Below, piece by piece: positions 5,916-58,595 of a stretch of 64,000 nt of DNA. Where the stretch lies: the IMG/VR virus record IMGVR_UViG_3300029442_000001, positions 107,696 through 171,695 of that record; one strand, written 5' to 3'. The stretch comes from a virus. The translations under genes were made by a program, and so were the position numbers. The stretch's first letter is position 1. Each line of letters starts with the position of its first letter. The notes under the pieces were generated by a model. The model was not told the DNA's origin and ran no database searches. It was given only the letters and a program-made list of their open reading frames with translations.

Positions 5916-5941
5916 GGAGCGTATAAATTACGCTCCATTTT
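5916..5941 (+). terminator. Terminator between convergent genes
   Basis: GGAGCGTA (5916-5923), 5-nt loop, TACGCTCC (5929-5936), then ATTTTC. The T-rich tail favours use on the plus strand, ending the 95-residue gene; the stem also covers the stop codon of the Nudix gene on the other strand. Confidence 0.7.
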
Positions 5942-8152: not shown

Positions 8153-8161
8153 TACTTTCCT

Positions 8162-8638
8162 TTATCCAATATACTTTTCTAATTTATTGCCGTCTGCTTG
8201 TTTTTTATATCCTAATCGTTCATAAAATGATTTGGCTGTTGAAGTTAACACTATTTTCTTAACTCCTTTTATTTTAGCTTCTTTTTCTAACGCATTTATA
8301 ACTTGTGATCCAGCGCCCCTTTCAATGGATCCAACATTCATAATTTCCGCTTCAGTTGATTTTCGTGGGATCCACATTGATCCAGCTGCTACAATCTTAT
8401 TATTTAAAATAACAAATGCTGTCCTAATGTTAGCTCGCTGTGATAAAGGTGCATTGATTTGTATTTCTAATACTGTACTAATATGACATAATGCAGCATA
8501 TTCATGATTTTCTTCGCCGTTTTCTTCCAATTCAGCTATTCGTTCATCAACTTGTTTAATTGATTGACGTGCAATATTATCAGACAGATTAATGCCAGTT
8601 TGTACATTTTCTTTTAATATCATTTCTGTTATTTTCAT
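8162..8638 (-). CDS. GNAT-family N-acetyltransferase with capsid-targeting-type N-terminus
   Basis: A 158-residue protein. The C-terminal half has the acetyl-CoA binding pattern ERGAGSQVI (motif A, R/Q-x-x-G-x-G/A) followed by VLTSTAKSFYERLGY, the usual GNAT ending. The substrate is unknown. The N-terminus MKITE-MILKE-N contains two overlapping (L/I)xE sites, suggesting packaging in the head and cleavage. It lies 10 nt before the CCA-enzyme gene and overlaps the upstream gene by 4 bp. Confidence 0.8.
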   Translation of the reverse strand: MKITEMILKENVQTGINLSDNIARQSIKQVDERIAELEENGEENHEYAALCHISTVLEIQINAPLSQRANIRTAFVILNNKIVAAGSMWIPRKSTEAEIMNVGSIERGAGSQVINALEKEAKIKGVKKIVLTSTAKSFYERLGYKKQADGNKLEKYIG

Positions 8639-9018
8639 TGCTTTTCTTTTTTCACAAACGAATTTACAGGACTTCGTTTGTTTACTGTTGTCGATTCTTC
8701 ACTTTTGGTTGTACTAATTTGCTTAATTGCACTTTTACCTGGCATCATTTTCAAAGCTAGTTTAATTGTTTCTTCATCTTCTGGACATTGTGTTGAGATA
8801 AACATATTCTCACCAAATATTGAGTCTTCTACATTAGTTTTTGGTAAAACTCCTGCTTGCAGAGCCCTTGCACGAGCAATAGCCATTCCCATCCTATATT
8901 GAAAATATGGGTCTTGATTGGTTAACTCAGGCAGAATAAATGCAGCAGGCAAAGCTCTTGCTACATCAATTTGAATACTACCTTCTCCACTTTCGTTTAA
9001 TATTTCCTTAATAGTCAT
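8635..9018 (-). CDS. Conserved phage protein with capsid-targeting-type N-terminus
   Basis: A 127-residue protein starting MTIKEILNE-SGE, a good (L/I)xE cleavage site after residue 9. The middle contains a DPYFQYRMGMAIARAR stretch of a type I associate with conserved phage proteins of unknown function; the last 30 residues are Lys/Ser/Thr-rich and probably unstructured. Overlaps its neighbours by 4 bp on both sides, so it is translated as part of the operon from 9371. Confidence 0.65.
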   Translation of the reverse strand: MTIKEILNESGEGSIQIDVARALPAAFILPELTNQDPYFQYRMGMAIARARALQAGVLPKTNVEDSIFGENMFISTQCPEDEETIKLALKMMPGKSAIKQISTTKSEESTTVNKRSPVNSFVKKEKQ

Positions 9019-9371
9019 TTAAAGTTTCCTGGATTCTTAGATTTATTGAAAAAGTCAGCAGTAACTTTATCACTTACATTAACTGGCTTATTCTCTTTTT
9101 TGTGAACTACATATGTTGGGTGTGGCAAATTTAATTGATGTGCTAATATTTTACTTGGATTACCATAATATGATTGTTGTCCAATTCTAACGCTTATATC
9201 ATTTATCCTTTGTATTGGAATATAAACTGATAGATTTCCTTTTGTATAAACATGCTCGTTATTTTGAACTCCATCATACATATATCCGTTGTCAACAAGC
9301 ATATTATTCGAAATGACCTGATTGGCTGTCATCTTTCCAATTTTTTTGACACTAACTTCACAAATTTGCAT
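9015..9371 (-). CDS. Unknown protein leading a late operon; leaderless start
   Basis: A 118-residue protein starting MQICE-V, which fits the (L/I)xE signature. No family recognised. It is the first gene of the late operon 9371 to 5928 (this gene, the 127-residue protein, GNAT, CCA enzyme, Nudix). A late promoter GATAAATA lies 6 nt before the ATG, so the transcript should begin at or next to the start codon. Confidence 0.65.
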   Translation of the reverse strand: MQICEVSVKKIGKMTANQVISNNMLVDNGYMYDGVQNNEHVYTKGNLSVYIPIQRINDISVRIGQQSYYGNPSKILAHQLNLPHPTYVVHKKENKPVNVSDKVTADFFNKSKNPGNFK

Positions 9372-14982: not shown

Positions 14983-15477
14983 TTATTTATCCAATTCTCC
15001 ATATCCTTGTGCTTGCCCTTCATCACTGGTTGTAAAAATACTATTACTTCTTCTAGCTTCAATTCCAAGTAGTTTCAAATTCTTATCATAAGCAATTGTA
15101 TTATCAATATCACTATCGACGGTCCGTCTTTTTTCAATACTAGCTGATTCAAAAATTACTCCAGATGGTCTTGTGCCACGAAATAATACTTTTTTTATTG
15201 TATCAAAAATATTAAGATAGTTACTAGCTTCTTTTTGTATTTTCTTTATTACATCTACTTCTTTCTTTATAACTTGTTTAACCTGAGATAATTCTTTCAA
15301 ATAATGTCCTTTTGCAGTCTGATGAATGTTTTTAACGGCATCGTTTGTTGTTTGTTTAATGTTATAATCAGAATCTTTAATCCAATAATTCAGTTTTTCC
15401 AGATGTGATTCGTCTTCCCACTTGTTTATTAAAACAGTACGATGGCTCTTTGCTTCCATTAAGTCAATTATTTTCAT
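14983..15477 (-). pseudogene. ART paralogue 0, truncated after the STS-type motif
   Basis: A 164-residue product starting MKIIDLME-A. It keeps the Arg motif (VLFRGTR) and SIFTTS followed by QAQGYG, then stops; the third motif with the catalytic Glu is absent, so it cannot be an active transferase. The break coincides with the late promoter of the next operon, as if a deletion joined the ART gene to a downstream unit. Its helix-rich N-terminal region and its ATGA overlap with paralogue 1 are intact, so a product may still be made. Confidence 0.75.
14984..14991 (-). promoter_or_regulatory. T4-type late promoter, leaderless, inside a broken ART gene
   Basis: GATAAATA, five bases, ATG at 14978. 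The octamer lies in the last codons of the truncated ART frame (14983-15477), whose stop TAA is part of it. Confidence 0.65.
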
Positions 15478-16322
15478 TTAGTGTATCCTAATTTTCTTCT
15501 AATTGTTTGAAATTCAAAAAAGTACTTTTCTAATATAGCAAAATATGCTCCATGTATTAGTACTTCATTTTCTGATTTTAAGGCGGCTGGAAAATTCTTA
15601 TTAGTAACTCTAAATTTTTTCTGAAAGCTATCTAAATCTGGTTCTCTATTTAATAATTCTCTAGTATATTTAAGTACTGGAGATTCGGGGAATTTCAATG
15701 ATATCCATTTTAAATTATCTACTATAGTACTTTTTTCTGTAAAACCTAATATTTCATATAGTTTAAATTTATAGTCAATCAAAGTAGATTTTAATTTCCA
15801 AACAAGATTATTATATTCTTTATCAGCCCTTTCAATCTCGCTGTCAATTACATTTGTTATTTCTTTTGGATAATCTTTTACATAACTACCCATATGATCT
15901 AAAATCAAATCATTGTGTATTCTGCTCCAACTAAATACTGCTGTATTTTTTGGAATGATGACATATGATATTTGTCCGTAGTCTGAAGAAGAATCCAAAC
16001 TAGATGTGGTAAAAATACTATTACTTCTAAGAGCTTTAATACCAAGTAACGTCATCAAATTATCATATCTTAGAGTATCCGATTTGCTACTATCCATTGG
16101 ACGTCTATTTTCAATACTTTCACCTTCAAAAATTACTCCAGTTTTTTTAGTTCCTCTATATAATACTCTATGTGTTGCATCAAATACTTTAAGATATTTA
16201 CTGCATTCTTTCTGTATTTTAATAGTAATGTCAGTATTTATTTGTGCGCCGTCTTCCCACTTGTTTATTAAAATTACACGGGTTGAATGTTTCTTTGCTT
16301 CCATTAAGTCAGTTATTTTCAT
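15474..16322 (-). CDS. ADP-ribosyltransferase paralogue 1 (R-S-E type, packaged)
   Basis: A 282-residue protein. N-terminus MKITDLME-A with an LxE site. Motif R: VLYRGT (R56); motif S: SIFTTSS (102-108) followed by DYG; motif E: SENEVLIHG with E253 and Glu two before it (ExE). This is the arrangement of T4 ModA/Alt (LWRG, SAS, QEVMIP) and of ADP-ribosyltransferase exoenzymes, which move ADP-ribose from NAD to protein or other targets. An FSWS block (after VIIPKNTAV) is shared by most paralogues. ATGA overlaps link it to paralogues 2 and 0. Confidence 0.82.
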   Translation of the reverse strand: MKITDLMEAKKHSTRVILINKWEDGAQINTDITIKIQKECSKYLKVFDATHRVLYRGTKKTGVIFEGESIENRRPMDSSKSDTLRYDNLMTLLGIKALRSNSIFTTSSLDSSSDYGQISYVIIPKNTAVFSWSRIHNDLILDHMGSYVKDYPKEITNVIDSEIERADKEYNNLVWKLKSTLIDYKFKLYEILGFTEKSTIVDNLKWISLKFPESPVLKYTRELLNREPDLDSFQKKFRVTNKNFPAALKSENEVLIHGAYFAILEKYFFEFQTIRRKLGYTK

Positions 16323-17308
16323 TTAAGTAATCCTAACTTAGTTCTGAGTGGTTGAAGGTGTACGAAGAAGTCCTCTTCAGCTACAGCAAAATATTCTCCG
16401 TGTATTAATACTTCATGCTTGGATCTGATTGCTGCTGAAAAATAAGAATCATAAACTCCATACTTTTTTTGAAATTCTTTAAGATTATATGTTGGATTTA
16501 TTAGTTCTTCTGAATATTTAAGTATTGGAGATTTTGGTTTATTTTTAGAGATCCAACTAACTAACCCTTTGGCATCTTCGATAGTTTCTTGATACAACAA
16601 ATCTCTCAATGAATTATTATATTCTGTCATTTCTTCAATTTTATTTTCGTCTTTTAGTTTCGATATAATAGCGTCACTTTTATCAAGCTCTTTTTTAATC
16701 ACATCTTTTAATTTACTAGAATACCTAGGGCCTAATAATGCTCTTCTATGTGTAGAATCTAACACCAAATCAGAATATATAAAGCTCCAACTAAACACTG
16801 CTGTATTCTTAGGTATAATTACATATACTTTGCTTCCATAATCACTTGCCTGATTTGAACTTCCTGTTGTAAATGTACTATTACAACGTAAGGCTTCAAT
16901 ACCAAGTAACTTCAATTTTTCATCATATTCTTTTGACAAAAGATTACTACTGTCCTTAGGATGACGATTTATTGGACTCGTTGCTTCAAATATAGATCCT
17001 CCGTTAGTAGTACCTCTGAATAAAAAATTGTTGATTTGATCATATACTTTAATGTAATTACTACATTCTTTTTGTATTCTCTTAGCAATAGCAGTCTCTG
17101 AATTAATAATTGGTTTTATTTTGGATAACTCTTTCTCACAATCTTTTAGTAGTTTTTTAAACTTTGTCTTTTCTTTTGGATCTTTTTCTTGTTTAATAAG
17201 AGATGTGATATCGACGATATCTTTATTTACATCTAATCCATCTACCCATTTAGTCAGTAAAGTTTTTCGTTTACTAACAGATTCTAATAGTAAGTCATTT
17301 ATTTTCAT
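16319..17308 (-). CDS. ADP-ribosyltransferase paralogue 2
   Basis: A 329-residue protein starting MKINDLLLE-S. It has a long Lys/Glu-rich, coiled-coil-like segment (about 30-75) before the catalytic domain. Motif R FLFRGT, motif S variant STFTTGS with QASDYG, FSWS kept, motif E KHEVLIHG with Lys two before the Glu. The change from SIFT to STFT and ExE to KxE suggests different targets or reduced activity. Third ART of the late operon that begins at 18738. Confidence 0.8.
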   Translation of the reverse strand: MKINDLLLESVSKRKTLLTKWVDGLDVNKDIVDITSLIKQEKDPKEKTKFKKLLKDCEKELSKIKPIINSETAIAKRIQKECSNYIKVYDQINNFLFRGTTNGGSIFEATSPINRHPKDSSNLLSKEYDEKLKLLGIEALRCNSTFTTGSSNQASDYGSKVYVIIPKNTAVFSWSFIYSDLVLDSTHRRALLGPRYSSKLKDVIKKELDKSDAIISKLKDENKIEEMTEYNNSLRDLLYQETIEDAKGLVSWISKNKPKSPILKYSEELINPTYNLKEFQKKYGVYDSYFSAAIRSKHEVLIHGEYFAVAEEDFFVHLQPLRTKLGLLK

Positions 17309-18288
17309 AATAATTTTTTAACCATTGGCCAAAATAGATGATTAATGGCAATATATTTTCCGTGTATTAATACTTCGTTACGAGACTGTAATGCCGCTGG
17401 CATATCACTATTAGTGATCTGATATTTCTTTTGAAATTTATCTAAATTAATTGTAATTGTATATTCAATGAGATCATGAAGTATTGTCGAGTTTGGAAAG
17501 TTTTTCTCTATAAAATCTAAAGTGTAAAATCGTGTATCAACTTGTTTAAACTTAATAATATCTTTTAAAATTAGAATATATCTATACATGACTCTGTGTT
17601 TGTCGGGGAGATAGTAATCATCGTCATTTATCAGGTGTTGATATTTTGATAATTCTAGTCTAGATTTGTTAATTAACTCAATTGGTAAATCATACAAATC
17701 ATCAAACGAATTACTTGTTAGTACTATATCGTCGGACGTCAATGAGCATGAAAAGTCTGCTGAATCTTCAGGAATAATTATATATGTATTCCCATATATT
17801 TGTACAGCCTGTTTCGAACTACTAGTAAAAATACTATTCAATCGAAGCGCTTTAATACCTAATTGTGTTGCACATCCATCAAACAACTTACTCATTATAG
17901 CACTACTATCAAGTGGTCTTCTTTCTGACAGAGATTCTGATTCAAATGCAGTTAAGTTTCCATTGATGCCACGATATAACCATCTTTGTTCTTGTTTAAA
18001 AATATTTACATACTTATTGCAACTAGATTTAACTATCTGTTGAACATTATTTATAACATCCCTATAGTTAGTCATGTCATTAATTATTTTTTCTTCCTCA
18101 TCAATGACATTCTCATAATATCCAATACTCTCTGTATCAATGGGTTCACTAGACTTAATTAAATCTATTTTATTTCTGAGGCGGTCAATACGCTCTATAC
18201 AAGATGTATAAACAATAATATCAAAATTACCAGTCAATGAGACTTTCTTAGGAGCTCCATCTTCATTGATAATCTCTGAGAAACGCAT
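17305..18288 (-). CDS. ADP-ribosyltransferase paralogue 3
   Basis: A 327-residue protein starting MRFSEIINE-D. Motif R WLYRGI, motif S SIFTSSSKQA, motif E RNEVLIHG (Arg two before the Glu). The conserved FSWS is FSCS here. Lies 3 nt after the Dps-like gene, overlapping paralogue 2 by 4 bp, so it is co-translated. R, S and E motifs are all present, so an active enzyme is likely. Confidence 0.8.
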   Translation of the reverse strand: MRFSEIINEDGAPKKVSLTGNFDIIVYTSCIERIDRLRNKIDLIKSSEPIDTESIGYYENVIDEEEKIINDMTNYRDVINNVQQIVKSSCNKYVNIFKQEQRWLYRGINGNLTAFESESLSERRPLDSSAIMSKLFDGCATQLGIKALRLNSIFTSSSKQAVQIYGNTYIIIPEDSADFSCSLTSDDIVLTSNSFDDLYDLPIELINKSRLELSKYQHLINDDDYYLPDKHRVMYRYILILKDIIKFKQVDTRFYTLDFIEKNFPNSTILHDLIEYTITINLDKFQKKYQITNSDMPAALQSRNEVLIHGKYIAINHLFWPMVKKLL

Positions 18289-18291
18289 TAG

Positions 18292-18738
18292 TTAGGCCCT
18301 TGCTTTCTTAGTCATTGACCGCATTTTCCACGCCCATTTTTCGTGAGCAGCAATACGATCCTGTAAAAAGTTTTGTAGACCTAAATGATCACCAGCTTGA
18401 GCATAAGTTTCTTCTAATAGCTTAATCACAACATGATTGTTTTCTAATAGCTCTTCAATCATTAATTCAGCTCTAGGAACTAGTAATTGTTCACTAATTT
18501 CAGTTAGTTCAGCAAAACGTGCTAAACTTCCTGGAGCATATATGTCAAGTGCTCTGATATGTTCAGCAATATCATCACATGATTCAAACACATCCTGATA
18601 TAATTCACCTAGGAATGCATGATAAGAATGAAAATGGGGACCTTCTAGGTTCCAATGGAAGTATTGAGCTTTTAGTTGGAATACATAAGATGTAGCTAAT
18701 AAACGTTTGATCTTTTCTTCGAGATGTAGGATAGTCAT
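18292..18738 (-). CDS. dps: Dps-like ferritin-fold protein
   Basis: A 148-residue protein with the Dps pattern: YHWN-type helix A (AQYFHWNLEGPHFHSYH), then FLGELYQDVFESCDDIAEHIRAL with the His/Asp/Glu of the ferroxidase site, and a basic C-terminus. Dps shells store iron, quench hydrogen peroxide and can bind DNA. It opens the late operon holding ART paralogues 3-0, its ATG 5 nt after a GATAAATA. Whether it is packaged is unclear: its N-terminus (MTILHLEE) contains LxE but not the usual spacing. Confidence 0.85.
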   Translation of the reverse strand: MTILHLEEKIKRLLATSYVFQLKAQYFHWNLEGPHFHSYHAFLGELYQDVFESCDDIAEHIRALDIYAPGSLARFAELTEISEQLLVPRAELMIEELLENNHVVIKLLEETYAQAGDHLGLQNFLQDRIAAHEKWAWKMRSMTKKARA

Positions 18739-18743
18739 ATAAC

Positions 18744-18751
18744 TATTTATC
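18744..18751 (-). promoter_or_regulatory. T4-type late promoter, leaderless (Dps/ART operon)
   Basis: GATAAATA, five bases, ATG at 18738. Predicted +1 is the A of the start codon. Confidence 0.7.
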
Positions 18752-18765
18752 TACATGTTAAAATA

Positions 18766-19540
18766 TCATTCACCAAATAATTTTATTTTAATATCTGGCC
18801 ACACACTAATGTGAATACCATAATATTCGCCATGTATTAATATTTCATTGCCTGATTTTAATGCACTAACGAAGTTTGTTGAATCAATTTGATATTTTGC
18901 TTGAAACTTATTAATATTTGCTGGAACGTCTTTGGCATCATCTAATATAATATCATCGTGAGTTTTACTCCAACTAAAATCAGCGGAGTCTTTTGGTATA
19001 ATTATATATCTTGTTCTAGTTGTATTCTGACCAAAATTTAAATAGGCAGAGATTTGGCTAGCATCTCCGCTAGTAAAAATACTATTTTTTCGTTGAGCTT
19101 TAACACCCAATTTATCTAACTGCCTGTCAAACAAAATAGACATATAATTATCACTATCAACAGGAATTCTGTCAATGAGACTCCTGTCTTGATATAATGC
19201 TCCACGATTTTTTCTGGCACTATATAAACATTCGTCGGTTTGTTTAAACACACTTAAATATTTTTTACACTCAGCGTTAATTTGCGGAATAAAATTGTCA
19301 AATTGTGCTAAGTAATCAGTAAATTGCTTCATCAACATTGTATATTTTACTGTTTCTTCATCAATATAATCCTGTGTTGATTTATATTCGGGGTTACTTT
19401 TATCAATCTTAATAAGATATATTTTTAATTCTTTTATATTGTGATCAATTTGAAGAATTTTTTTTATTTAAACTAGCTTGTATTTTGGGAACTAAAATTT
19501 GTTGATGTTTAGTTTCAGTTAAAAATTCATGTGATCTCAT
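18766..19540 (-). pseudogene. ADP-ribosyltransferase paralogue 4, interrupted by one base in an A8 tract
   Basis: The gene starts at ATG 19540 (MRSHEFLTE-T, overlapping paralogue 5 by 4 bp) and the frame breaks at an A8 run (19465-19458). Removing one A gives an uninterrupted 257-residue ART; otherwise translation stops after 31 residues, and only an internal start near 19338 could give the C-terminal 190 residues. Motifs beyond the break are intact: LYSARKNRG, SIFTSGDASQ, FSWS, GNEILIHG. This may be a real mutation, a phase-variable or slippage switch, or a homopolymer sequencing error. Confidence 0.75.
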
Positions 19541-20535
19541 TTTAATAATTTACCTTTGAGTGCTTCCCAAACTGAACTATGCAAGCCATAAAACTCACCA
19601 TGTATTAGTATTTCATTTCTGGTACTAAGTGCTTTATCAAAATTAGTTGTATCAATTTTAAATATGTCTATAAACTTCTTTATATCAACAGTTGGTTTAT
19701 ATTTAAGAAGTTTTTTGGATATTTTCAGTATTGGCGAATTAGGAAATATTTGTTTAATACGTCTTAAATTAAAATCCATGTTTGTATAATTTTGCTTGTC
19801 AAGATTATATAATATCTTGTGATATTCATTACTGGTCCAGTAATGATCATCATCGTCATTATTATCAATATCATCTGTTACTTTTCCCAACTCATCGCTT
19901 ATTATTTTTTTAAATGGACTATCTACATAAGTTGGAATTATTGATGAGTTGCTTAGTATTAGATCGTCGTTGGATTCACTCCAGCTAAAATCAGCTGTAC
20001 TTTTAGGTATAATAACATACTTTGTTTGGCCATAGCCACCAGCATGTGATGAGTCAGACGAAGTAAAAATACTATTTCCTCTGCGTGCTTTAACACCCAT
20101 TTCTTGTAATATTTTGTCAAATGATATAGTAATTCCTTGGTCGCTGTCTCTTACTTGTCTATTTTCAACACTACGTCCAACATATAATCCACCATGCATT
20201 CTACGGCCACTAAACAAACACTTATCTGTACGTTTGTAAGCGTCTAGATAAGTTTTACAGTCGTTACGAATTTGAGGAATGAATGGTGTAAATAATTTTA
20301 AATAGTCTTGGCATCTCTTTTTAATTCTTGCATACTTAGCTTCTGCAGCATCTAATTCAATTTTAACTTGTTCAGCTGATGAAGCATTAAAATCTTTACT
20401 GGTGTTGTTTACAAGATTATTATATCTTTTCTTTAAGTAATAAACAGTATGTCGGTTTAATGTAACATTATTTATTAACTCAGTATTTATAGGTGTTACT
20501 AAAACTTCCATATCTATTACTTCATTGATTTTCAT
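19537..20535 (-). CDS. ADP-ribosyltransferase paralogue 5 (LFSGRR subgroup)
   Basis: A 332-residue protein starting MKINE-V. Paralogues 4, 5 and 6 form a subgroup in which the LYRG motif is replaced by L-Y/F-SGRR (here CLFSGRRMHGG), SIFTSSDSSHA is motif S, and motif E is RNEILIHGEFYGL. The gene has an acidic Asp/Asn run (about residue 222) and repeats the N-terminal helical region. Overlaps paralogues 4 and 6 by 4 bp. Confidence 0.8.
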   Translation of the reverse strand: MKINEVIDMEVLVTPINTELINNVTLNRHTVYYLKKRYNNLVNNTSKDFNASSAEQVKIELDAAEAKYARIKKRCQDYLKLFTPFIPQIRNDCKTYLDAYKRTDKCLFSGRRMHGGLYVGRSVENRQVRDSDQGITISFDKILQEMGVKARRGNSIFTSSDSSHAGGYGQTKYVIIPKSTADFSWSESNDDLILSNSSIIPTYVDSPFKKIISDELGKVTDDIDNNDDDDHYWTSNEYHKILYNLDKQNYTNMDFNLRRIKQIFPNSPILKISKKLLKYKPTVDIKKFIDIFKIDTTNFDKALSTRNEILIHGEFYGLHSSVWEALKGKLLK

Positions 20536-21506
20536 TGGAATAACTTCCCTTTAACTATGTCCCATATACTGTTATGTATCCCATAATATTTACCATTTAT
20601 TAGTATTTCGTGATTTGTGTTTAGTACCGCTTCCATTGAGGTTGTATTAATCTTGAACTTTTCTTGAAACTTGTTGAGATCAATTTTTGGTTTATATTTA
20701 AGTAATTGATCTGCTATACTATTAACTGGAGAGTCAGGATATTTATTTTTGACATAAGCTAAATCAGTTTTAATGTTATAAAAATTTTGTCTATATAACC
20801 ATTCTAAGATTTGTAAGTATTTGTAATGTTGTCCAATATCAGAATCACGTTCAATTCTTTCTTTTTCATCTTTAAGAATCTTTTCCATATTATCTGGCAA
20901 TGGTCTGTAAGTTAATTTCAATGAATAACTACTTAGTACTAGATCATCTCTTGTTTCGCTCCAACTAAAGTTAATGTCATTGAATGGAATTATTATGTAT
21001 CTATCAGCGCCATATTCTGCAGCATGACATTCACTTGACGTTGTAAAAATACTATTTCCTCTACGTGCTTTAACACCAAGTTTTTTTAATAAACTATCAA
21101 ATTTGGTTGTAACAGAGGCCATACTGTCTTTTGGTCTTCGTTTTTCTAAGCTTTCATCCTGATACAATGCTCCATGAAATCTACGTCCACTGTATAATAC
21201 TTGGCCTGTTCTGTTAAATAATTCTAGATAATGACTACAGTTATTTTGAATTATTGGTCCGAATTTTGAAAATTCTTTCATTGAATCAGCAAATCTTTTT
21301 TGAGTTTTTATAACATTATCTTTAGCTTTTTGCAACTCTTTTTTAAATTTAGCAGCTTGTTCTGGAGTTGTACTTTCCAACTTGTTATGTTCAATACTTT
21401 TTACTTTGTTAATGCCTACTTGCAATGTAGCTTGTAACTCAAGCTGAACACTATGTATTAAAACTTTTTCATTTGCGCTTTCAACAATAAATTCGTGTGA
21501 CCGCAT
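20532..21506 (-). CDS. ADP-ribosyltransferase paralogue 6 (LYSGRR subgroup)
   Basis: A 324-residue protein starting MRSHEFIVE-S. Motif R VLYSGRRFHG, motif S SIFTTSSECHA, FSWSETRDDL, motif E NHEILINGKYYGI (Asn two before the Glu, and ING in place of IHG). N-terminal 90 residues are Lys/Glu-rich helices. The start codon overlaps the stop of paralogue 7 by one base (TAATG). Confidence 0.8.
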   Translation of the reverse strand: MRSHEFIVESANEKVLIHSVQLELQATLQVGINKVKSIEHNKLESTTPEQAAKFKKELQKAKDNVIKTQKRFADSMKEFSKFGPIIQNNCSHYLELFNRTGQVLYSGRRFHGALYQDESLEKRRPKDSMASVTTKFDSLLKKLGVKARRGNSIFTTSSECHAAEYGADRYIIIPFNDINFSWSETRDDLVLSSYSLKLTYRPLPDNMEKILKDEKERIERDSDIGQHYKYLQILEWLYRQNFYNIKTDLAYVKNKYPDSPVNSIADQLLKYKPKIDLNKFQEKFKINTTSMEAVLNTNHEILINGKYYGIHNSIWDIVKGKLFQ

Positions 21507-22555
21507 TACATATCTCCTTTAAACAAATCAAATAAATCAATTTGAACCGCAATGTATTTTCCATGTATTAGTACTTCGTGCTTTTTAATTATAGCAGTTT
21601 GTAAGTTGGTGTCCATTGGTTTATATTTTTTCTTAAATTTATTCAAATTGACTCGGCTATATTCAATACTGTTTAATGTAAGTAGTAATGATTCAGGAAA
21701 ATAATAATTTAGAAATTTTCGACCAGTGAAAGAAATAATTCTGTTTCCAGTAGTTCGAACATCTAGTAGATATTTATAATAACATTGTAGAATTGATAAT
21801 TTTTCATTATATTCATTATCGTTTGATTTTGATATTAACTCTTTCTCTTCTTCAATTTTAGTCTGTATTTCATCTAATTCATTGTCTAAGGCGGCAATCA
21901 CTTCGGGTGAAAAAGACATTAGTCCATTAAATGAATCACTATGTAATATTAGATCCTTTCCAGCCTCTGACCAGGAATAATCAGCTGTATCTTCAGGAAA
22001 AATAACATAAATGTTATTACCATATGATTTAGCTTGGCTTATACTACTTGATGTAAAAATACTGTTAGAACGCAGAGCTTTAATACCTAATTCTTGTAAA
22101 CAACTATCATATAATATAGTAGAATCTATATTGCTATCTTTTGGAGGTCGATTATTAGGACTGTCGGATTCAAATGCAGGAAATGAATTTGACTGACCAC
22201 GATATAACATTCCACTATGCTTGAAGATTCCAATATATTCACTACATCTTTTTTTAATTATTGATATCAATAATTTTATGTTTTCTTTTAAATTTTCTTC
22301 TTTGTATTGATTTTTTTGAAGTTCAGCAATTCTATCAGTTAATACTTTATATTCTTTTTTAATTTTAAAAGATTCGTCAGATGTAATTTCTGGATTAAAC
22401 CATATTTTTTCATGACATTCTGCTTGTTTCTTTTTTAAATCAATAATTACATAAGTAACCAATGGATCAACAGAAATGTCTACCAATGGATCAACAGAAA
22501 TGTCTACCAATGGAGTTTTAACTGGTTTTATGTTCTCTACTTCAAATAGTCTCAT
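21506..22555 (-). CDS. ADP-ribosyltransferase paralogue 7
   Basis: A 349-residue protein. The start at 22555 (MRLFE-V) is chosen because it lies 1 nt after the upstream stop and gives the shared N-terminus; the frame is open for 19 more codons. A VDISVDPL segment is repeated near residue 20 by a 24-bp tandem duplication. Motif R MLYRGQ, motif S SIFTSSSISQA, DYSWSEAGKDL, motif E KHEVLIHGKYIAV. A long Glu/Lys-rich stretch near residue 230 may be a coiled coil. Confidence 0.8.
   Translation of the reverse strand: MRLFEVENIKPVKTPLVDISVDPLVDISVDPLVTYVIIDLKKKQAECHEKIWFNPEITSDESFKIKKEYKVLTDRIAELQKNQYKEENLKENIKLLISIIKKRCSEYIGIFKHSGMLYRGQSNSFPAFESDSPNNRPPKDSNIDSTILYDSCLQELGIKALRSNSIFTSSSISQAKSYGNNIYVIFPEDTADYSWSEAGKDLILHSDSFNGLMSFSPEVIAALDNELDEIQTKIEEEKELISKSNDNEYNEKLSILQCYYKYLLDVRTTGNRIISFTGRKFLNYYFPESLLLTLNSIEYSRVNLNKFKKKYKPMDTNLQTAIIKKHEVLIHGKYIAVQIDLFDLFKGDM
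22458..22513 (-). repeat. 24-bp tandem repeat in ART paralogue 7
   Basis: Two perfect 24-bp copies (22458-22481, 22482-22505) and an 8-bp start of a third. In frame, it duplicates eight residues near the N-terminus just after the capsid-targeting-type peptide. Confidence 0.85.
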
Positions 22556-22556
22556 A

Positions 22557-23570
22557 TTAGTTTTTCTTTTCTGATATAGTAAGTAACGGTTCAAAATTTG
22601 AATTAGGTACAAATTCGTGTTTACGTATAACTGTCTTAGCTAAAAGCTCAAGTTCATCTTTAAATTTGTTCCATACTAGCACGAATGGAGCATTAACATC
22701 AGTTTTTAAATCTTTTAATACTGCTTGAAAGCCTGGATCTTTCTTTTTCAATTTTGGTGCATATTTTCGATAAGTTTCAATGAATAATCTGGCAAGTTCA
22801 TTGATTGTTATTGGTTTCTTATTACGTAAATCATTTACTCTATCTAAGAAGTGTGTTGAAAAATGAACATCCATTCCAGCTAGCTCCCAAAATTGATTTA
22901 AATACTTCTCCAGAGAATGCAATTCATCATTAGTAATTTCTTCCGTTATTTTCTTTTTGGTACCTGACGGGGCAACTGCCATAGCGTCCTTTAAGGTTTT
23001 GAAATAACTCATCCCATTAACTTTTAACTTTGATATTTGAACAGCTCTTTTTGGATCACCAGCTGCTGCTGAAATATAAAATGCTTTTTTATCATCTTCT
23101 GCTGCTGCTTTTCTCAATGCTGAAGCACTTCCAAGTCTGGGACTTTGTACGTGAGTAATTGATTTAAATGTATACTTACGTCCTAACTTGTCTGGAACTC
23201 CATTATAATCTTTAAGAAGTTTACCACTCCACCCATTCCAATCTTCAATATCAGTTACATATATTAAATCAGTTACTTCAGGATGATGTTGATTAATATA
23301 AAAAGCTAATGTAATAACTAATACTTCAGGAATGATGTGTCCTTTAAGGGTTGGATCAAATGCTTCCATCCAAGCTTTTTTAACTTCGTAAGTAAGTGGA
23401 TTATCTTTATTATGAGTAGTAGGACTAGTACCAACAAACCATAAATTATTGTCAGCTGAATGTTTAACAACTTCAAATAATTTAACATGTCCCATATGTA
23501 CTCCGTTAAATCGACCAAAGCACATAGCGGCTGTTGTATTACTTGCTTCAAATAATTGTTTGAGGTTCAT
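22557..23570 (-). CDS. HxGH nucleotidyltransferase (NMNAT/cytidylyltransferase-like), packaged type
   Basis: A 337-residue protein starting MNLKQLFE-A (LxE site). Residues 18-28 read FGRFNGVHMGH, the ATP-binding HxGH motif of NMN adenylyltransferases and cytidylyltransferases; a later SPRLGSASALR resembles the ISxTxxR signature, with the serines shifted. If it is an NMNAT it would make NAD, the substrate of the surrounding ARTs; that link is inference. The C-terminal 130 residues are a separate helical domain I do not recognise. Last base spacing to the next ART is 1 nt. Confidence 0.75.
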   Translation of the reverse strand: MNLKQLFEASNTTAAMCFGRFNGVHMGHVKLFEVVKHSADNNLWFVGTSPTTHNKDNPLTYEVKKAWMEAFDPTLKGHIIPEVLVITLAFYINQHHPEVTDLIYVTDIEDWNGWSGKLLKDYNGVPDKLGRKYTFKSITHVQSPRLGSASALRKAAAEDDKKAFYISAAAGDPKRAVQISKLKVNGMSYFKTLKDAMAVAPSGTKKKITEEITNDELHSLEKYLNQFWELAGMDVHFSTHFLDRVNDLRNKKPITINELARLFIETYRKYAPKLKKKDPGFQAVLKDLKTDVNAPFVLVWNKFKDELELLAKTVIRKHEFVPNSNFEPLLTISEKKN

Positions 23571-24683
23571 TTAATGTTTTCCTAAGTTTGCTGCTGAGAA
23601 TTTAAATCTATCAACTAACTTTACTGGGCCTGTATTGGTATGTACAATGAATCCTTCTTGACCAGTTTCATCACCTATTCCAGCATGTAAATCAGTAGTT
23701 GATTTATCAAGTTCATTTATTATCTTAAATTTTGCAACTGTAAGTAAACTAAACACAGTCATTACAGCACTAAATGCACTTTGATTTTTTTTAATATGTT
23801 CTAATATTCTAGGAGTTGCTGGTCCAGATTGAGTTTCTAACCATTTAATAAACTGTTGATCTAAATTAATTAATGATTTACTATATATAACATGTTGATT
23901 AACGAATGTTTTCAATAATGTCAAAAATGATTTAATCTTTGCTTCAGCTAAATCAGACTGATTAAATAATTGATCAATTGATGGACCAAACTTAGCAACT
24001 AATTGTGTAGCTTTTTTAAGTTCATCAGGCTCAGTAATAGTTACATTAGGAGCTAATTGGTCTGACATTATTAATAAGCCATTTACTTGATTTCTTACAA
24101 CACTTTGTAAATCAGTATCAGTAACGTGATGTCCTGAAGTTGCTCCAGCATCTAACTTACTATGCACTATAATTCCAACTTTGCTACGTCCTATTAACTT
24201 ACCGAGTTCAGTATCAACGTTAACTGAATAAGTAACTGTATTTGGAGTGAAGACAAACTTATCGCCTTGTTTTGGAGGTTGAGCTGTATACATTAAGTCT
24301 CCAAAAAGATATCCCGAAAAGCTTGTCGGAATACTCTTTTCAAAAATTGGCCACAGTGAAGAATATAAAGCAAGTAAATGTTGATTGGTGCCACCTTTTC
24401 TAGCTGATAATATTTGTTCAAGTTCTTGTATACTATGTGGAGGAGTACTGATCATATACTTATCACCCATAGCAAAACCAACTTTATCTCGTCCCCAGAA
24501 TATAGCAGGCTTTCCGTCTGGCTTTAAACTTACTGTTTGTGGTTGTTTAATAGCTTGTCGTAATGCATTGATAGAGTCTGTTATCGCTGCTGATCCAATG
24601 AATGCAGCGTCTTCAACATGTTCAATTCGAGCTTTTTTAAGATTATATGTCTCTTCTTCTGTAATAAATTCTGATGATCGCAT
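23571..24683 (-). CDS. Ligase/nucleotidyltransferase-fold phage protein, packaged type
   Basis: A 370-residue protein starting MRSSEFITE-E. Residues 54-57 read KPDG in VSLKPDGKPAIFWG, like the nucleotide-binding KxDG of RNA/DNA ligases; FSGYLFGDLMY and a later EGFIVH fit ligase motifs III and IV. It resembles a phage family of unknown function with a KWDGxPA motif (I believe DUF6267) whose cyanophage members also start with an MKTFxxFLxE-type peptide. Opens a six-gene late operon (this gene, HxGH enzyme, ART 7-4), 5 nt after a GATAAATA. Confidence 0.65.
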   Translation of the reverse strand: MRSSEFITEEETYNLKKARIEHVEDAAFIGSAAITDSINALRQAIKQPQTVSLKPDGKPAIFWGRDKVGFAMGDKYMISTPPHSIQELEQILSARKGGTNQHLLALYSSLWPIFEKSIPTSFSGYLFGDLMYTAQPPKQGDKFVFTPNTVTYSVNVDTELGKLIGRSKVGIIVHSKLDAGATSGHHVTDTDLQSVVRNQVNGLLIMSDQLAPNVTITEPDELKKATQLVAKFGPSIDQLFNQSDLAEAKIKSFLTLLKTFVNQHVIYSKSLINLDQQFIKWLETQSGPATPRILEHIKKNQSAFSAVMTVFSLLTVAKFKIINELDKSTTDLHAGIGDETGQEGFIVHTNTGPVKLVDRFKFSAANLGKH

Positions 24684-24688
24684 ATCAG

Positions 24689-24696
24689 TATTTATC
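24689..24696 (-). promoter_or_regulatory. T4-type late promoter, leaderless (ligase-fold/NMNAT-like/ART operon)
   Basis: GATAAATA, five bases, ATG at 24683. It lies between ART paralogue 8 and the ligase-fold gene. Confidence 0.7.
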
Positions 24697-24709
24697 TGAA
24701 TTAATAATA

Positions 24710-25441
24710 TTATATTAATCGTTCAGCAAGCATATCTTCGTATATTTCTTTTCTAATAGCAATATATGTTCCGTGTACTAGTATTTCATGGCCAGATTTT
24801 AATGCAGCATCCAGATCAGTCTGGTCAAGTTTAAATACTTGTTGAAATGCTTTCAGATCCAAAATATTTAAATTTGAACTAGGTTGTAATACTATATCCC
24901 GATGTGTTTGAGACCAACTAAAATCATCAGAATTAAACGGAAAGATAACATATACTCTACCATATGAGATAGCTTGGCTTACACTAGTTGTAGTAAAAAT
25001 ACTATTTGATCTCAACGCTTTAATGCCTAGTTTGGTTGCAAATTCATCATATTCTTCTTGAATTACCATGTAACTGTCTTTTGGTTCTCTATCAAAAGGT
25101 GAATAAGCTTCGAATGCTGCTGGCTTCTTACTTCTAATTCCACGATATAATACTCTATCATTCTTTTTAAATGCATCATAAAATTTACTACATTCTGATT
25201 TAATTCTATTAGATATTTGTTCGTAAGTTTTTATTATGTCAGTATTTGAATTAATCTTTTCTAATTCATCATTGGCGCGTGCAAGCTTCTCTTGAAATAA
25301 TTTTTTTCGTGATTCACTAGTAGTCTGATTTATAATTCTAACAAAAAATTGTATGTTAAGTTCGATATTTTCTTTAGCAATTGGATCGTAATCTGCTAGT
25401 AAAGTAACTACATTTGATTTTGATATTTCGTTTAGTCTCAT
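24710..25441 (-). CDS. ADP-ribosyltransferase paralogue 8 (short form)
   Basis: A 243-residue protein starting MRLNE-I. Paralogues 8-11 are a compact subgroup (242-243 residues) without the long inserts. R100 in VLYRGIRSKK, SIFTTTSVSQA (147-157), FSWSQTHRDIVL, E219 in GHEILVHG (Gly two before). A PPAF/PAAF block after motif R is shared within the subgroup. Overlaps paralogue 9 by 4 bp; its C-terminus is 14 nt from the late promoter of the next operon. Confidence 0.83.
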   Translation of the reverse strand: MRLNEISKSNVVTLLADYDPIAKENIELNIQFFVRIINQTTSESRKKLFQEKLARANDELEKINSNTDIIKTYEQISNRIKSECSKFYDAFKKNDRVLYRGIRSKKPAAFEAYSPFDREPKDSYMVIQEEYDEFATKLGIKALRSNSIFTTTSVSQAISYGRVYVIFPFNSDDFSWSQTHRDIVLQPSSNLNILDLKAFQQVFKLDQTDLDAALKSGHEILVHGTYIAIRKEIYEDMLAERLI

Positions 25442-26169
25442 AATAGTTTCTCAATGATCATATCTTCATATAAATCATGCCTAACTGCAATATACTTACC
25501 ATGTATTAGTACTTCATGTTCAGAAAATAATGCCTCAGGTAAATTAGTCTGATCAAGTTTATATGTCTGTTGAAACTCTTGTACGTCTTTAAAATGTAAT
25601 GGCTTCTCAGCGAATAATACAAGATCCTTTTTTGCATGAGACCAGCTAAAATCAGCTGAACTCTTAGGAAATACGACGTATAGATCGCCATAAATTCTAG
25701 CTTGATCTTCGTCTGACGATGTGAAAATACTATTTGATCTTTGTGCTATAATACCAAGTTGCTCAGCAAATCTATCAAATTTTAATGTATTAACTAATCC
25801 GCTGTCCTTAGGTCGTCTGTCAGTTGGACTATTCGATTCGAATGCTGCTGGTTTGTTATGTCTGATGCCTCTATATAATACAGCATTACTTCGTTTGAAT
25901 ATACTATAAAATTTACTACATTCATTTTTAATCTTATCAGCTAATTCTTTTAATATATCATTTGACTTATTATATTCTTCAATCTTTCTTAATTGTTCTT
26001 TGGCGTGGTCTAACTCAACCTGAAATATTGCTTTACGTTCAGGAGTAACATAATCTCTATTTAATTGATCAGTATAATACTGAATGTCTAAATTTATGCT
26101 GTTAAGTTTAGTAGCGTTATACTTATCAATTAATGTCGTTATGTTAGTAGATATTTCATTCAATCTCAT
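25438..26169 (-). CDS. ADP-ribosyltransferase paralogue 9 (short form)
   Basis: A 243-residue protein starting MRLNE-I. Motif R VLYRGIRHNK, motif S SIFTSSDEDQA with YG, FSWSHAKKDLVL, motif E SEHEVLIHGKYIAV, one of three paralogues (1, 9, 10) with a full ExE, the classical catalytic pair of arginine-directed ARTs. Middle gene of the three-gene late operon from 26894, coupled by 4-bp overlaps. Confidence 0.83.
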   Translation of the reverse strand: MRLNEISTNITTLIDKYNATKLNSINLDIQYYTDQLNRDYVTPERKAIFQVELDHAKEQLRKIEEYNKSNDILKELADKIKNECSKFYSIFKRSNAVLYRGIRHNKPAAFESNSPTDRRPKDSGLVNTLKFDRFAEQLGIIAQRSNSIFTSSDEDQARIYGDLYVVFPKSSADFSWSHAKKDLVLFAEKPLHFKDVQEFQQTYKLDQTNLPEALFSEHEVLIHGKYIAVRHDLYEDMIIEKLL

Positions 26170-26894
26170 AATAGTTTCTCTTTTATCATATCTTCATATA
26201 CTTGATATTTAATAGCAATATATCGTCCATGTATTAATACTTCATGTTCTGATTTTAATGCAGCATCCAGATCTGTTTTCTTTAATTTGTATATCTCTTG
26301 GAATGATTTTAAGTCCTTAAATCCAGCTTTATGTTCAAGATATAATATAATTTCTCGTCGAGATTCTGACCAGCTAAAATCAGCTGTATCTTTTGGGTAT
26401 ATGACAAATAGAATGCCATAATATCTAGCGTGACATTCACTCGAAATAGTGAAAATACTATTTGATCTAAGTGCTTCAATTCCGAGTTCTTGAGCAAACT
26501 TATCAAATAATATTGTATTATTAACATCACTGTCCTTAGGTTCTCTATTTACTGGGCTCATTGATTCAAATGCTGGCGGATGTTTATATTTGTATCCTCT
26601 AAACAATACTTTATCACATTTCTTAAAGGCATTATAAAAGTCTCTACATTCAACTTTAATTTTAGTAGCTAATTTTTCCAATGAACCTTCCGGAAGTGAT
26701 TCCAGATATGTTAATTCTTCTAGTGCATCTTCTAAATATTGTTGAGTTATTTTTTTATGCTCTTCTGTTTGTGGCTGCCGCATAAGTTTTTTATAATATG
26801 ATATTTGCGAATTAATTGAATTTCTCCTAATAGGATCAAAATTCGCCGGTAGTAACAGTATTTTGTTTGAATCAATCATTTCATATAGACGCAT
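26166..26894 (-). CDS. ADP-ribosyltransferase paralogue 10 (short form), operon leader
   Basis: A 242-residue protein starting MRLYE-M. Motif R VLFRGYKYKH, motif S SIFTISSECHA (Ile replaces Thr/Ser in the STS position), FSWSESRREIIL, motif E SEHEVLIHGRYIAI (ExE). First gene of operon 10-9-8, with a leaderless late promoter. Confidence 0.83.
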   Translation of the reverse strand: MRLYEMIDSNKILLLPANFDPIRRNSINSQISYYKKLMRQPQTEEHKKITQQYLEDALEELTYLESLPEGSLEKLATKIKVECRDFYNAFKKCDKVLFRGYKYKHPPAFESMSPVNREPKDSDVNNTILFDKFAQELGIEALRSNSIFTISSECHARYYGILFVIYPKDTADFSWSESRREIILYLEHKAGFKDLKSFQEIYKLKKTDLDAALKSEHEVLIHGRYIAIKYQVYEDMIKEKLL

Positions 26895-26899
26895 AGTAA

Positions 26900-26907
26900 T
26901 ATTTATC
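26900..26907 (-). promoter_or_regulatory. T4-type late promoter, leaderless (ART 10-9-8)
   Basis: GATAAATA, five bases (TTACT), ATG at 26894. The same octamer and near-identical 5-nt spacer precede ART 11. Confidence 0.7.
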
Positions 26908-26912
26908 TAAGT

Positions 26913-27644
26913 TTATAGTAATTTTTTACTTACCATTTCGTTGTATATGTCGTCTATAATAGCAATATATCTACCATGAATTAATATTTCGTGACCTGAT
27001 AATAAAGCTTTATCTAAACTAAGTTGATCAAGCATAAATTTTTGTTGAAATAATTGGATTGATGTGCAACTATCTAACATGTAAGGAACTAATACTATAT
27101 CAGAATATTTCATTGACCACGAAAAATCAGCTGTATCTTTTGGAAAGATATTATATAAATAATATCCATACTCTTTAGCTTGAGATTTTTGAGTAGTAGC
27201 GAAGATACTGTTTGACCTGAGTGCTCTAATTCCAAGCTGTTCAGCAAATGTATCAAATTTTATTGTGGCTATTTCATTACTATCCTTTGGCCGACGGCCT
27301 TCTATACTAGTTGATACAAATACTGGTGGTCTCTCATTTCTAATTCCTCTAAATAATACCTTGTTTACTTTCTTACAAGCATTATAAAATTTACCACATT
27401 CATTTTTAACTTTATCGGCTATTTTTTTAATCTTTTCATCTATTTCTTTGGCATCAATATCATTTAGAATATCTAGATTGTAGTCTATAGATTGTTGTAA
27501 TGACTTTCTATCTTCTGGATCAGTTGAATCATTTTGTAATTTAATCAGATTAGCAATATTCTTCTCAGCACTCTCTTTTTCATCTAATCCTATTTCAGAT
27601 AGTAACGAAATTATATTTTCATCAGACATTTCATATAGACGCAT
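26913..27644 (-). CDS. ADP-ribosyltransferase paralogue 11 (short form), monocistronic
   Basis: A 243-residue protein starting MRLYE-M. Motif R VLFRGIRNER, motif S SIFATTQKSQA, FSWSMKYSDIVL, motif E GHEILIHGRYIAI. It has its own leaderless late promoter and is followed after 5 nt by the promoter of the next unit, so it is probably a single-gene transcript. Confidence 0.83.
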   Translation of the reverse strand: MRLYEMSDENIISLLSEIGLDEKESAEKNIANLIKLQNDSTDPEDRKSLQQSIDYNLDILNDIDAKEIDEKIKKIADKVKNECGKFYNACKKVNKVLFRGIRNERPPVFVSTSIEGRRPKDSNEIATIKFDTFAEQLGIRALRSNSIFATTQKSQAKEYGYYLYNIFPKDTADFSWSMKYSDIVLVPYMLDSCTSIQLFQQKFMLDQLSLDKALLSGHEILIHGRYIAIIDDIYNEMVSKKLL

Positions 27645-28416
27645 AGTAATATTTATATAAGCCTATTATAATACCTGATCTAACAGCAATATATGTGCCT
27701 TTAATCCAAATTTCGTGTCCAGATAATAATGCTTCTTTTAAATTAGTATCTGAATGTAATCCTAAAACCTTAACCATATTATTAATATTAAAATTAGTAC
27801 GTAGTTTAAACTCTCCAAATTGCTTTTTAATTGGATGATTCAGGTAATCGACTCATGTATATTTCTAGAAGATTACGTTGTTCAAGCACATTATTAATAA
27901 TAGACAAATACATTCTATTAATAGTTCCATGGTAATTATCTTCAACTATTGAAGGATTACTTGTTGGATACTTATCTATATAATCTTTTAAAGCTTTAGT
28001 GAATTGACTAGTATAAGAGTATGCTCCATATTTAATTACTGAATCAAAATCAAAAACTAAGTCATCATCATTTTCACACCAAGTATAATGAAAACCATTT
28101 TTTGGATATATTTGAAATACTTCACCAAAATACTTTGCTAATTTATGTGAAGTAGTTGCATATATAGAATTTAGACGCCTAGCTTCAACACCAATACTAT
28201 CAAGACCCCAATCTATTACTCTATATATTTCTGCATTAGATGTCTTTGGAATACGATCAGTACTACTACTATCTATATAATAGTTATTCTCATCTCTGGA
28301 ATGACCACGTGTTCCATGTAGTAATGGATGTTCAGGAACTTCTTTCAATACCTTAAGATAATCAGAACACTCAGTAGCTATTTTTTCTTCTAATGTGATA
28401 TTTCAAATAAGCGCAT
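27631..28416 (-). pseudogene. ADP-ribosyltransferase paralogue 12, degraded by frameshifts
   Basis: A start ATG at 28416 (MRLFE-I) follows a late promoter but the frame closes after eight codons. The main body is open from 28348 to 27827 (motifs HGTRGH, SIYATTSHKLA, YTWCENDDDLVF), and the C-terminus with GHEIWIKGTYIAV lies in a third frame at about 27820-27660. At least two frameshifts are needed to restore it, and several conserved residues have drifted (FSWS to YTWC, LIHG to WIKG). Most likely a decaying copy. Confidence 0.75.
27650..27657 (-). promoter_or_regulatory. T4-type late promoter, leaderless (ART 11)
   Basis: TATAAATA, the exact T4 consensus octamer, five bases, ATG at 27644. It lies in the 3' remnant of the degraded paralogue 12. 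Confidence 0.7.
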
Positions 28417-28421
28417 AGCAG

Positions 28422-28429
28422 TATTTATC
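28422..28429 (-). promoter_or_regulatory. T4-type late promoter of degraded ART 12
   Basis: GATAAATA, five bases, ATG at 28416. The promoter has been kept although the gene is broken. Confidence 0.6.
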
Positions 28430-50858: not shown

Positions 50859-51302
50859 TTAATACTTTTCAACTTCTAGAATTTCTGCTGATGTAGTTAA
50901 ATATTCCCATACTTGCTCATTTACATGAGGAAGTCCTACCCAATAATTTTTAGCAGCATTTTCAACTTCAAATGAATCTTTTTCATATCCATCTGAAATC
51001 AAGCTTTCTATTTCAGATCCATAATTAATATCGTGACGTTGAATTGGTCCAAGTGGTTTTACTGTAAACATCCACTCAGTTCCTCCGCCAGCTAAATCAA
51101 TATCATCAGGATCTGCTACCATAAACACAGAATCTTTATGAGATAATTTATCTGTTGGTCGATATTTTTCTAATATTTGATAAAAAGAAGTATCTCCCCA
51201 ATCAGATTCATATTCTGAATGACGGGGAGATAAAATCGTTCCTACAGGTAATTTATTGTTACTTCCGTGATAATAAGTTGTTGATATTTCAAATGCTTTC
51301 AT
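50859..51302 (-). CDS. Arr-like ADP-ribosyltransferase-fold protein, packaged type
   Basis: A 147-residue protein unlike the array ARTs. YYHGSNNKLPVGTIL near the N-terminus and VFMVADPDDI, WMFTVKPLGPI further on match the strand pattern of rifampin ADP-ribosyltransferase (Arr) and related folds, with His14 as the first catalytic position. It starts MKAFE-I, near the capsid-targeting signature, and lies 5 nt after a CTAAATA promoter. The fold assignment is tentative. Confidence 0.5.
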   Translation of the reverse strand: MKAFEISTTYYHGSNNKLPVGTILSPRHSEYESDWGDTSFYQILEKYRPTDKLSHKDSVFMVADPDDIDLAGGGTEWMFTVKPLGPIQRHDINYGSEIESLISDGYEKDSFEVENAAKNYWVGLPHVNEQVWEYLTTSAEILEVEKY

Positions 51303-54696: not shown

Positions 54697-54725
54697 TTTT
54701 GCTAGGACTTAAATATGGAAATTAA
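54688..54725 (+). repeat. 38-bp direct repeat, copy 1
   Basis: Identical to 55184-55221. Covers the stop of pentapeptide gene 2 and the start of gene 3, where the reading frame differs from copy 2. Confidence 0.9.
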
Positions 54726-58276: not shown

Positions 58277-58290
58277 GTTTGTAGGTGATG

Positions 58291-58589: not shown

Positions 58590-58595
58590 ATCTAT

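What the first reader, a model, noticed from the sequence alone, without database searches (positions are those of the whole stretch)
14983..28416. Tandem array of 13 ADP-ribosyltransferase paralogues
Ten intact and three broken copies of an R-S-E-type ART fill most of 13.4 kb, in six transcription units each with its own late promoter. Motifs LYRG, SIFT(S/T)S and (H/N)EVLIHG can be read in each intact copy and match T4 ModA/Alt. T4 has only three ARTs. Two subgroups (LYRG and LYSGRR) and three size classes show local duplication and divergence. It suggests an arsenal of NAD-using effectors against many host targets, which I have not seen described.
Basis: partly seen in the sequence, partly recalled or inferred. 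Interest (0 to 1): 0.92.

Follow-up and report, generated by a model that had tools for sequence, protein, structure and literature searches.

The report
Tandem phage array of ADP-ribosyltransferase-like genes
A giant uncultured phage carries 17 copies (13 in one row) of a previously unnamed enzyme-like gene that looks like a remote cousin of phage T4's NAD-using host-modifying enzymes, and many carry a short tag like the one T4 uses to pack proteins into its head, suggesting a set of proteins injected into the host.

Summary
In detail: 13 paralogues (10 intact, 3 broken) lie at 14983-28416 on the minus strand, with six T4-late-type promoters, interrupted by a Dps-like, a nucleotidyltransferase and a DUF6267 gene. 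Four more copies lie elsewhere in the 171.7-kb genome (17 in all). All match PHROG_11975 (unknown function); no Pfam ART model matches. They belong to a large unnamed jumbo-phage family: 150 distinct ORFs here, with tandem arrays in about ten lineages, including gp53-gp63 of cultured Agrobacterium phage Atu_ph07. The model is confident (pLDDT 92-96), but Foldseek gives no significant PDB match; rifampin-ART (Arr) and PARP3 are among the top non-significant hits. A weak in-register profile match to T4 ModA/ModB supports an ART. R-S-E is not met strictly: Arg is Ser in 2 of 10 intact copies, the STS serine is Thr or Ala, ExE is present in 3 of 10; the Glu is in all. Most members start M(K/R)(I/L/W)xE(L/I), often followed by LxE, like T4 capsid-targeting propeptides; with late promoters and the Atu_ph07 position this suggests head-packaged, injected effectors. 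Best read as a new, divergent ART-like family expanded independently in several phages; activity, targets and packaging are inferred.

The parts
14983..15477 (-). ART-like copy 1, broken (C-terminal third with the Glu motif missing)
15474..16322 (-). ART-like copy 2, intact; LYRG, RSNSIFTTSS, ENEVLIHG; leader MKITDLME|A
16319..17308 (-). ART-like copy 3, intact; LFRG, KHEVLIHG; leader MKINDLLLE|S
17305..18288 (-). ART-like copy 4, intact; LYRG, RNEVLIHG; leader MRFSEIINE|D
18292..18738 (-). Dps/ferritin-like gene inside the array (not an ART)
   Evidence: PF00210 E 3.5e-18
18766..19540 (-). ART-like copy 5, broken by frameshift; LYSARK
19537..20535 (-). ART-like copy 6, intact; LFSGRR (Arg replaced by Ser), RNEILIHG
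20532..21506 (-). ART-like copy 7, intact; LYSGRR, NHEILING; leader MRSHEFIVE|S
21506..22555 (-). ART-like copy 8, intact; LYRG, KHEVLIHG
22557..23570 (-). Cytidylyltransferase/NMN-adenylyltransferase-like protein with leader MNLKQLFE|A
   Evidence: PF01467 E 5.7e-8; phrog_3041; weak NMNAT models
23571..24683 (-). DUF6267 protein with leader MRSSEFITE|E; homologues in cyanophages and other Kyanoviridae
   Evidence: PF19782 E 1.6e-33
24710..25441 (-). ART-like copy 9, intact (short class); GHEILVHG
25438..26169 (-). ART-like copy 10, intact (short class); EHEVLIHG; structure predicted
26166..26894 (-). ART-like copy 11, intact (short class); EHEVLIHG
26913..27644 (-). ART-like copy 12, intact (short class); GHEILIHG
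27650..28416 (-). ART-like copy 13, broken (stop after 8 codons and a frameshift)
28422..28429 (-). T4-late-type promoter GATAAATA, 5 nt before the ATG of copy 13
   Evidence: read
27650..27657 (-). late-type promoter TATAAATA, 5 nt before the ATG of copy 12
26900..26907 (-). late-type promoter GATAAATA, 5 nt before the ATG of copy 11
24689..24696 (-). late-type promoter GATAAATA, 5 nt before the ATG of DUF6267
18744..18751 (-). late-type promoter GATAAATA, 5 nt before the ATG of the Dps-like gene
14984..14991 (-). late-type promoter GATAAATA, 5 nt before the ATG (14978) of the gene after copy 1
50859..51302 (-). separate small protein with a leader and a YYHGS start that resembles rifampin ART (Arr) by eye
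   Evidence: no Pfam or NCBIfam hit

Best explanation
The array encodes a divergent ADP-ribosyltransferase-like family (PHROG_11975) that this phage has multiplied by tandem duplication. The genes are transcribed late. Most products probably carry an N-terminal capsid-targeting propeptide, enter the prohead core, lose the propeptide to a prohead protease, and are injected with the DNA, as T4 Alt is. In the host each copy would cleave NAD and transfer ADP-ribose to its own target or small set of targets. The copies differ in the region flanking the active site, the residue two before the catalytic Glu and the length of the insert before it, which would fit divergence in targets. Shown here: the array, its duplication history, the family, late-type promoters and leader conservation. 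Inferred: ART fold and chemistry, packaging, cleavage, injection, targets.
For: Motif order LYRG - IFT(T/S)S - E(V/I)LIHG at strands placed as in ARTs, in models of pLDDT 92.4 and 95.6. The domain profile aligns to T4 ModA/ModB relatives motif-on-motif, score 24.3 against at most 20.2 in 60 shuffles. Three rifampin-ART (Arr) structures rank among the top 7 PDB hits of the domain, with the highest TM-scores of the rows listed (0.28-0.35), and PARP3 appears in the full-length search (none significant). The Glu is conserved in 96 of 99 members, Asp in 3. Ten of eleven ortholog pairs of at least 78% identity have dN/dS of 0.06-0.43. Leader pattern at 111 of 150 starts against 2 of 578 internal Met; most Atu_ph07 copies read M(K/R)WxQL(T/N/I)E, and T4 IPII/IPIII start MKTYQEFIAE|A and Alt MELITELFDE. 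Atu_ph07 has a gp21-type protease (PF03420 E 2.6e-22), and its array gp53-gp63 lies in CDS 31-76, where 29 proteins were found in virions by mass spectrometry (PMC6102473; numbering checked against gp31 and gp70). NadV and a PRPP synthetase-like gene lie about 5-8 kb from the second cluster. Prior survey: phage ARTs are enriched in myoviruses and often packaged (PMC9503650).
Against: No ART profile matches any of 99 members and no PDB hit is significant. The first STS serine is replaced (Cys in 55, Thr in 24, Val in 14 of 99), the first-motif Arg is Ser or His in 9 of 99, and ExE is not conserved. In Atu_ph07, leader-bearing genes outside the array are not enriched in the virion-protein clusters (strict pattern 1 of 134 inside, 8 of 664 outside), so the link from leader to virion is not independently confirmed. 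I could not read the table naming the detected proteins. No gp21 or gp23 was found in this phage's contigs, which may be incomplete. Copies 9-12 have the start pattern but no clear (L/I)xE site just after it, apart from a loose match in copy 12.
Confidence: 0.55

Rival explanations
1. ART-fold proteins that are not protein-arginine transferases: they hydrolyse NAD or modify nucleic acids or small molecules, for example to counter NAD-based host defence.
For: 7 of 10 intact copies lack the ExE acid and some members have His or Ser for the first Arg; the best non-significant fold hits are Arr (small-molecule ART) and PARP, not R-S-E toxins. The phage carries NAD-salvage genes.
Against: Ten or more diverged copies are hard to explain if all do the same NAD cleavage.
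Confidence: 0.2
2. Catalytically inactive internal head proteins (scaffold, filler or decoys) derived from ARTs.
For: Leader like T4 internal proteins; substitutions at active-site positions; three broken copies tolerated.
Against: The Glu and the RxNS motif are almost invariant over 99 diverse members, and dN/dS is mostly low.
Confidence: 0.12
3. Not an ART: an unrelated alpha/beta fold with chance motif similarity.
For: No significant profile or fold match.
Against: Motif order, in-register ModA/ModB alignment above all shuffles, and two separate ART types among the top fold hits.
Confidence: 0.13

Closest known systems
T4 ModA/ModB and Alt (R-S-E ADP-ribosyltransferases)
   Same: Motif order LYRG - FTTS - ExE/EVLI; N-terminal propeptide (Alt); T4 also shows an old partial duplication of alt (alt.-1, alt.-2).
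   Different: No detectable HMM match; the first STS serine and the ExE acid are not conserved; extra invariant R-x-N-S, P and D; N-terminal helical region; 17 copies instead of 3.
Agrobacterium phage Atu_ph07 gp53-gp63 and IMG/VR arrays (PHROG_11975)
   Same: Same family, tandem array, LxE-type leader, a neighbouring nucleotidyltransferase-like gene.
   Different: The five Atu_ph07 copies in the tree are a separate expansion (own branch, SH-aLRT 100); the array also holds a second, more divergent subfamily; all are annotated hypothetical.
Bacillus phage G (at least 10 ARTs, PMC9503650)
   Same: Many ARTs in one jumbo phage.
   Different: Not reported in the text read as a tandem array of one family; not compared directly here.

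Membership tests
R-S-E ADP-ribosyltransferases (PF03496, T4 Alt/ModA/ModB) | match to the family HMM | tested here: not met
   no PF03496 hit in the genome or in 99 members; the genome-search control was silent, so only the direct hmmscan counts
R-S-E ADP-ribosyltransferases (PF03496, T4 Alt/ModA/ModB) | ART fold | tested here: inconclusive
   confident models; Arr at E 0.9-2.5 and PARP3 at E 0.75 among top hits, none significant
R-S-E ADP-ribosyltransferases (PF03496, T4 Alt/ModA/ModB) | profile similarity to ModA/ModB | tested here: inconclusive
   hhalign score 24.3, in register, above 60 of 60 shuffles, but probability 7%
R-S-E ADP-ribosyltransferases (PF03496, T4 Alt/ModA/ModB) | conserved first-motif Arg | tested here: not met
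   Arg in 8 of 10 intact array copies and 89 of 99 members; Ser or His otherwise
R-S-E ADP-ribosyltransferases (PF03496, T4 Alt/ModA/ModB) | STS motif | tested here: not met
   T-(T/S/I)-(S/G/T) in nine array copies and A-T-T in one; first Ser is mostly Cys, Thr or Val across the family
R-S-E ADP-ribosyltransferases (PF03496, T4 Alt/ModA/ModB) | catalytic Glu | tested here: met
   10 of 10 intact copies; Glu in 96 of 99, Asp in 3
R-S-E ADP-ribosyltransferases (PF03496, T4 Alt/ModA/ModB) | ExE or QxE | tested here: not met
   -2 residue is E in 3 of 10, otherwise K, R, N or G
R-S-E ADP-ribosyltransferases (PF03496, T4 Alt/ModA/ModB) | NAD-dependent ADP-ribose transfer | not testable with these tools
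   needs biochemistry
PHROG_11975 | match to the profile | tested here: met
   99 of 99 members, best E 1.8e-117
T4-type head-packaged proteins with a capsid-targeting sequence | short N-terminal propeptide with an (L/I)xE cleavage site | tested here: inconclusive
   start pattern at 111 of 150 family starts against 2 of 578 internal Met; clear LxE site in only part of this phage's copies
T4-type head-packaged proteins with a capsid-targeting sequence | presence in virions | not testable with these tools
   Atu_ph07 array lies in a cluster with 29 virion proteins, but the individual list (Table S5) could not be read

The most novel reading that the evidence does not exclude
A large group of jumbo phages carries a modular cargo system: one short head-targeting leader sits on a changing set of proteins (ART arrays, Nudix, NMNAT-like, GNAT, poly(A)-polymerase-like, kinase-ART fusions), and a previously unrecognised ART family is repeatedly expanded in tandem within it to give each phage its own injected arsenal of NAD-using effectors.
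Probability: 0.35. Interest if true: 0.8.

Novelty: new variant of a known kind. Interest (0 to 1): 0.62.

Why it matters
Phage ARTs reprogram host transcription and translation (T4), and ADP-ribosylation is central to phage-host conflict. A widespread, database-unnamed family that expands independently into arrays of about 4-17 copies would be a source of new host targets, and its leader offers a way to predict injected proteins from sequence. A cultured phage (Atu_ph07) with existing virion proteomics makes the packaging claim directly testable.

Tried and rejected
PF03496 over the whole genome found nothing, and the control genomes were silent too. No Pfam, NCBIfam or PDB-sequence match for the family. 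Foldseek with the full model was dominated by N-terminal helices, so a domain-only model was made; still no significant hit. A scan of bacterial and archaeal genome contigs found no relative. ModB used as a single query found only near copies. The leader as an independent predictor of virion clusters in Atu_ph07 failed outside the array (loose p = 0.09, strict p = 0.81); the 16/145 against 11/665 enrichment is driven by the array itself. Assembly error for the broken copies was rejected. The idea that ATAAATA is over-represented in the genome was rejected (121 found, 122-155 expected): only its position is non-random.
Full report
Observation. The window is bases 107,696-171,695 of a 171,695-base IMG/VR virus record. 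On the minus strand at 14983-28416 there are 13 homologous genes. Ten are intact (243-350 aa) and three are broken. They are interrupted by a Dps-like gene, a cytidylyltransferase-like gene and a DUF6267 gene. Six sites (G/T)ATAAATA lie exactly 5 nt before an ATG (six units). Four more members lie at genome 54152-58294, one fused to a Zeta-toxin/AAA_33-type kinase. The same sequence, breaks included, occurs in other IMG/VR assemblies, one of them 242 kb long, so the phage is a jumbo phage and the record is incomplete.

Family. All scanned copies match PHROG_11975 (unknown function) and no Pfam model. Scans of IMG/VR gave 150 distinct family ORFs, with arrays of 4-17 copies in about ten phage lineages. 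The one cultured array found is Atu_ph07 gp53-gp63; Salicola phage SCTP-2 has a relative too. No relative was found in bacterial or archaeal genome contigs. In a quick tree the 12 copies of this phage included fall on one side of a branch (support 74) and the five Atu_ph07 copies included form their own branch (100), so the expansions are largely independent; neighbouring copies 2/3, 6/7 and 9-12 group together, as expected of tandem duplication. Ten of eleven close ortholog pairs have dN/dS of 0.43 or less, one has 0.85.

Is it an ART? Models are confident (pLDDT 92.4 full length, 95.6 domain). Strand and helix order places LYRG, IFT(T/S)S and E(V/I)LIHG where ARTs have their first, second and third motifs (my reading of the strand order). 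Foldseek against the PDB gives nothing significant, but three rifampin-ART (Arr) structures are among the first seven domain hits and have the highest TM-scores of the rows shown, and PARP3 appears in the full-length list. The domain profile aligns with an 11-member ModA/ModB set motif-on-motif; its score of 24.3 exceeds all 60 column shuffles (maximum 20.2), although the hhalign probability is only 7%. Across 99 members Glu219 is almost invariant (96 Glu, 3 Asp) and Arg144 and Ser147 are invariant, while the LYRG arginine is Ser or His in 9, the first STS serine is mostly Cys, Thr or Val, and the -2 residue of ExE varies. I put an ART fold at about 0.85 and ADP-ribosyl transfer at about 0.6.

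How it may work. Family starts follow M(K/R)(I/L/W)xE(L/I) or a near variant at 111 of 150 places, against 2 of 578 internal Met. All eleven array genes of Atu_ph07 have it, mostly as M(K/R)WxQL(T/N)E. T4 IPII/IPIII begin MKTYQEFIAE|A and Alt begins MELITELFDE; T4's targeting needs only about ten residues and gp21 removes such propeptides (PMC9026906). The Kyanoviridae phage Melnitz has LxE-like starts on its DUF6267 protein (MLTLINFSKYITED) and on a protein starting MKKFSEIIEARGDTAVFTFGRFNPPTTGHEK, nucleotidyltransferase-like by its sequence. Atu_ph07 has a gp21-type protease and its array lies in CDS 31-76, of which 29 proteins were detected in virions; if detection were random, about 7 of the 11 would be among them, but the list itself was not readable here. 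Against this, other leader-bearing Atu_ph07 genes are not enriched in the virion clusters. So packaging is likely (about 0.6), not shown. NadV (NCBIfam equivalog, 468.8 bits against a cut-off of 405) and a PRPP synthetase-like gene lie near the second cluster, and an NMNAT-like gene inside the array, in keeping with NAD use.

Known and new. ARTs in phages, ART-rich phages and head packaging of ARTs are known (PMC9503650, PMC7824862). I found no description of this family as an ART, or of tandem arrays of it, in the open-access library searched. Novelty: a new variant of a known kind.

Noticed in passing
genome-wide; window 14984, 18744, 24689, 26900, 27650, 28422: T4-late-type motif GATAAATA sits exactly 5 nt before the ATG in 13 listed ORFs (32 ORFs within 25 nt; six at 18-21 nt, several with an AGGA between), which predicts leaderless late mRNAs.
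   Followed up: partly
window 58250-58610 (+): ARAGORN reports a tmRNA gene (marked *) in the phage with tag peptide DTTNNWIATGSYDFSNEDVLA.
   Followed up: no
L004:6060-7595 and L004:5126-6058 (genome 63.6-66.1 kb): NadV (nicotinate/nicotinamide phosphoribosyltransferase) and a PRPP synthetase-like gene: a partial NAD-salvage set.
   Followed up: partly
L003:15152-16630: ART-like domain fused to a P-loop kinase (AAA_33/Zeta_toxin, E 3.4e-9); a similar-looking kinase is a separate gene in the array of L017 (10800-11489), and BFVD names an Atu_ph07 hit (778 aa) Zeta toxin domain-containing.
   Followed up: partly
window 50859-51302 and Atu_ph07 290373-290885: Small leader-bearing proteins with YYHGS / VYHGS starts that look like rifampin ART (Arr) by eye; no profile match for the window one.
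   Followed up: partly
window 5928-9371: Run of five genes with the same kind of start: Nudix, poly(A)-polymerase/tRNA-nucleotidyltransferase-like, GNAT and two unknowns.
   Followed up: partly
Atu_ph07 161850-162098: A leader-bearing small ORF directly after the portal gene, the place of T4 gp67 (prohead core).
   Followed up: no
window 53994-54875 and many other places in the genome: Many small proteins starting M(E/Q)IKS(K/R)xG with repeats that look like pentapeptide repeats by eye.
   Followed up: no
L019:25066-25451 (T4): T4 alt.-1/alt.-2 are annotated as an old broken duplication of alt, a precedent for the broken copies here.
   Followed up: yes
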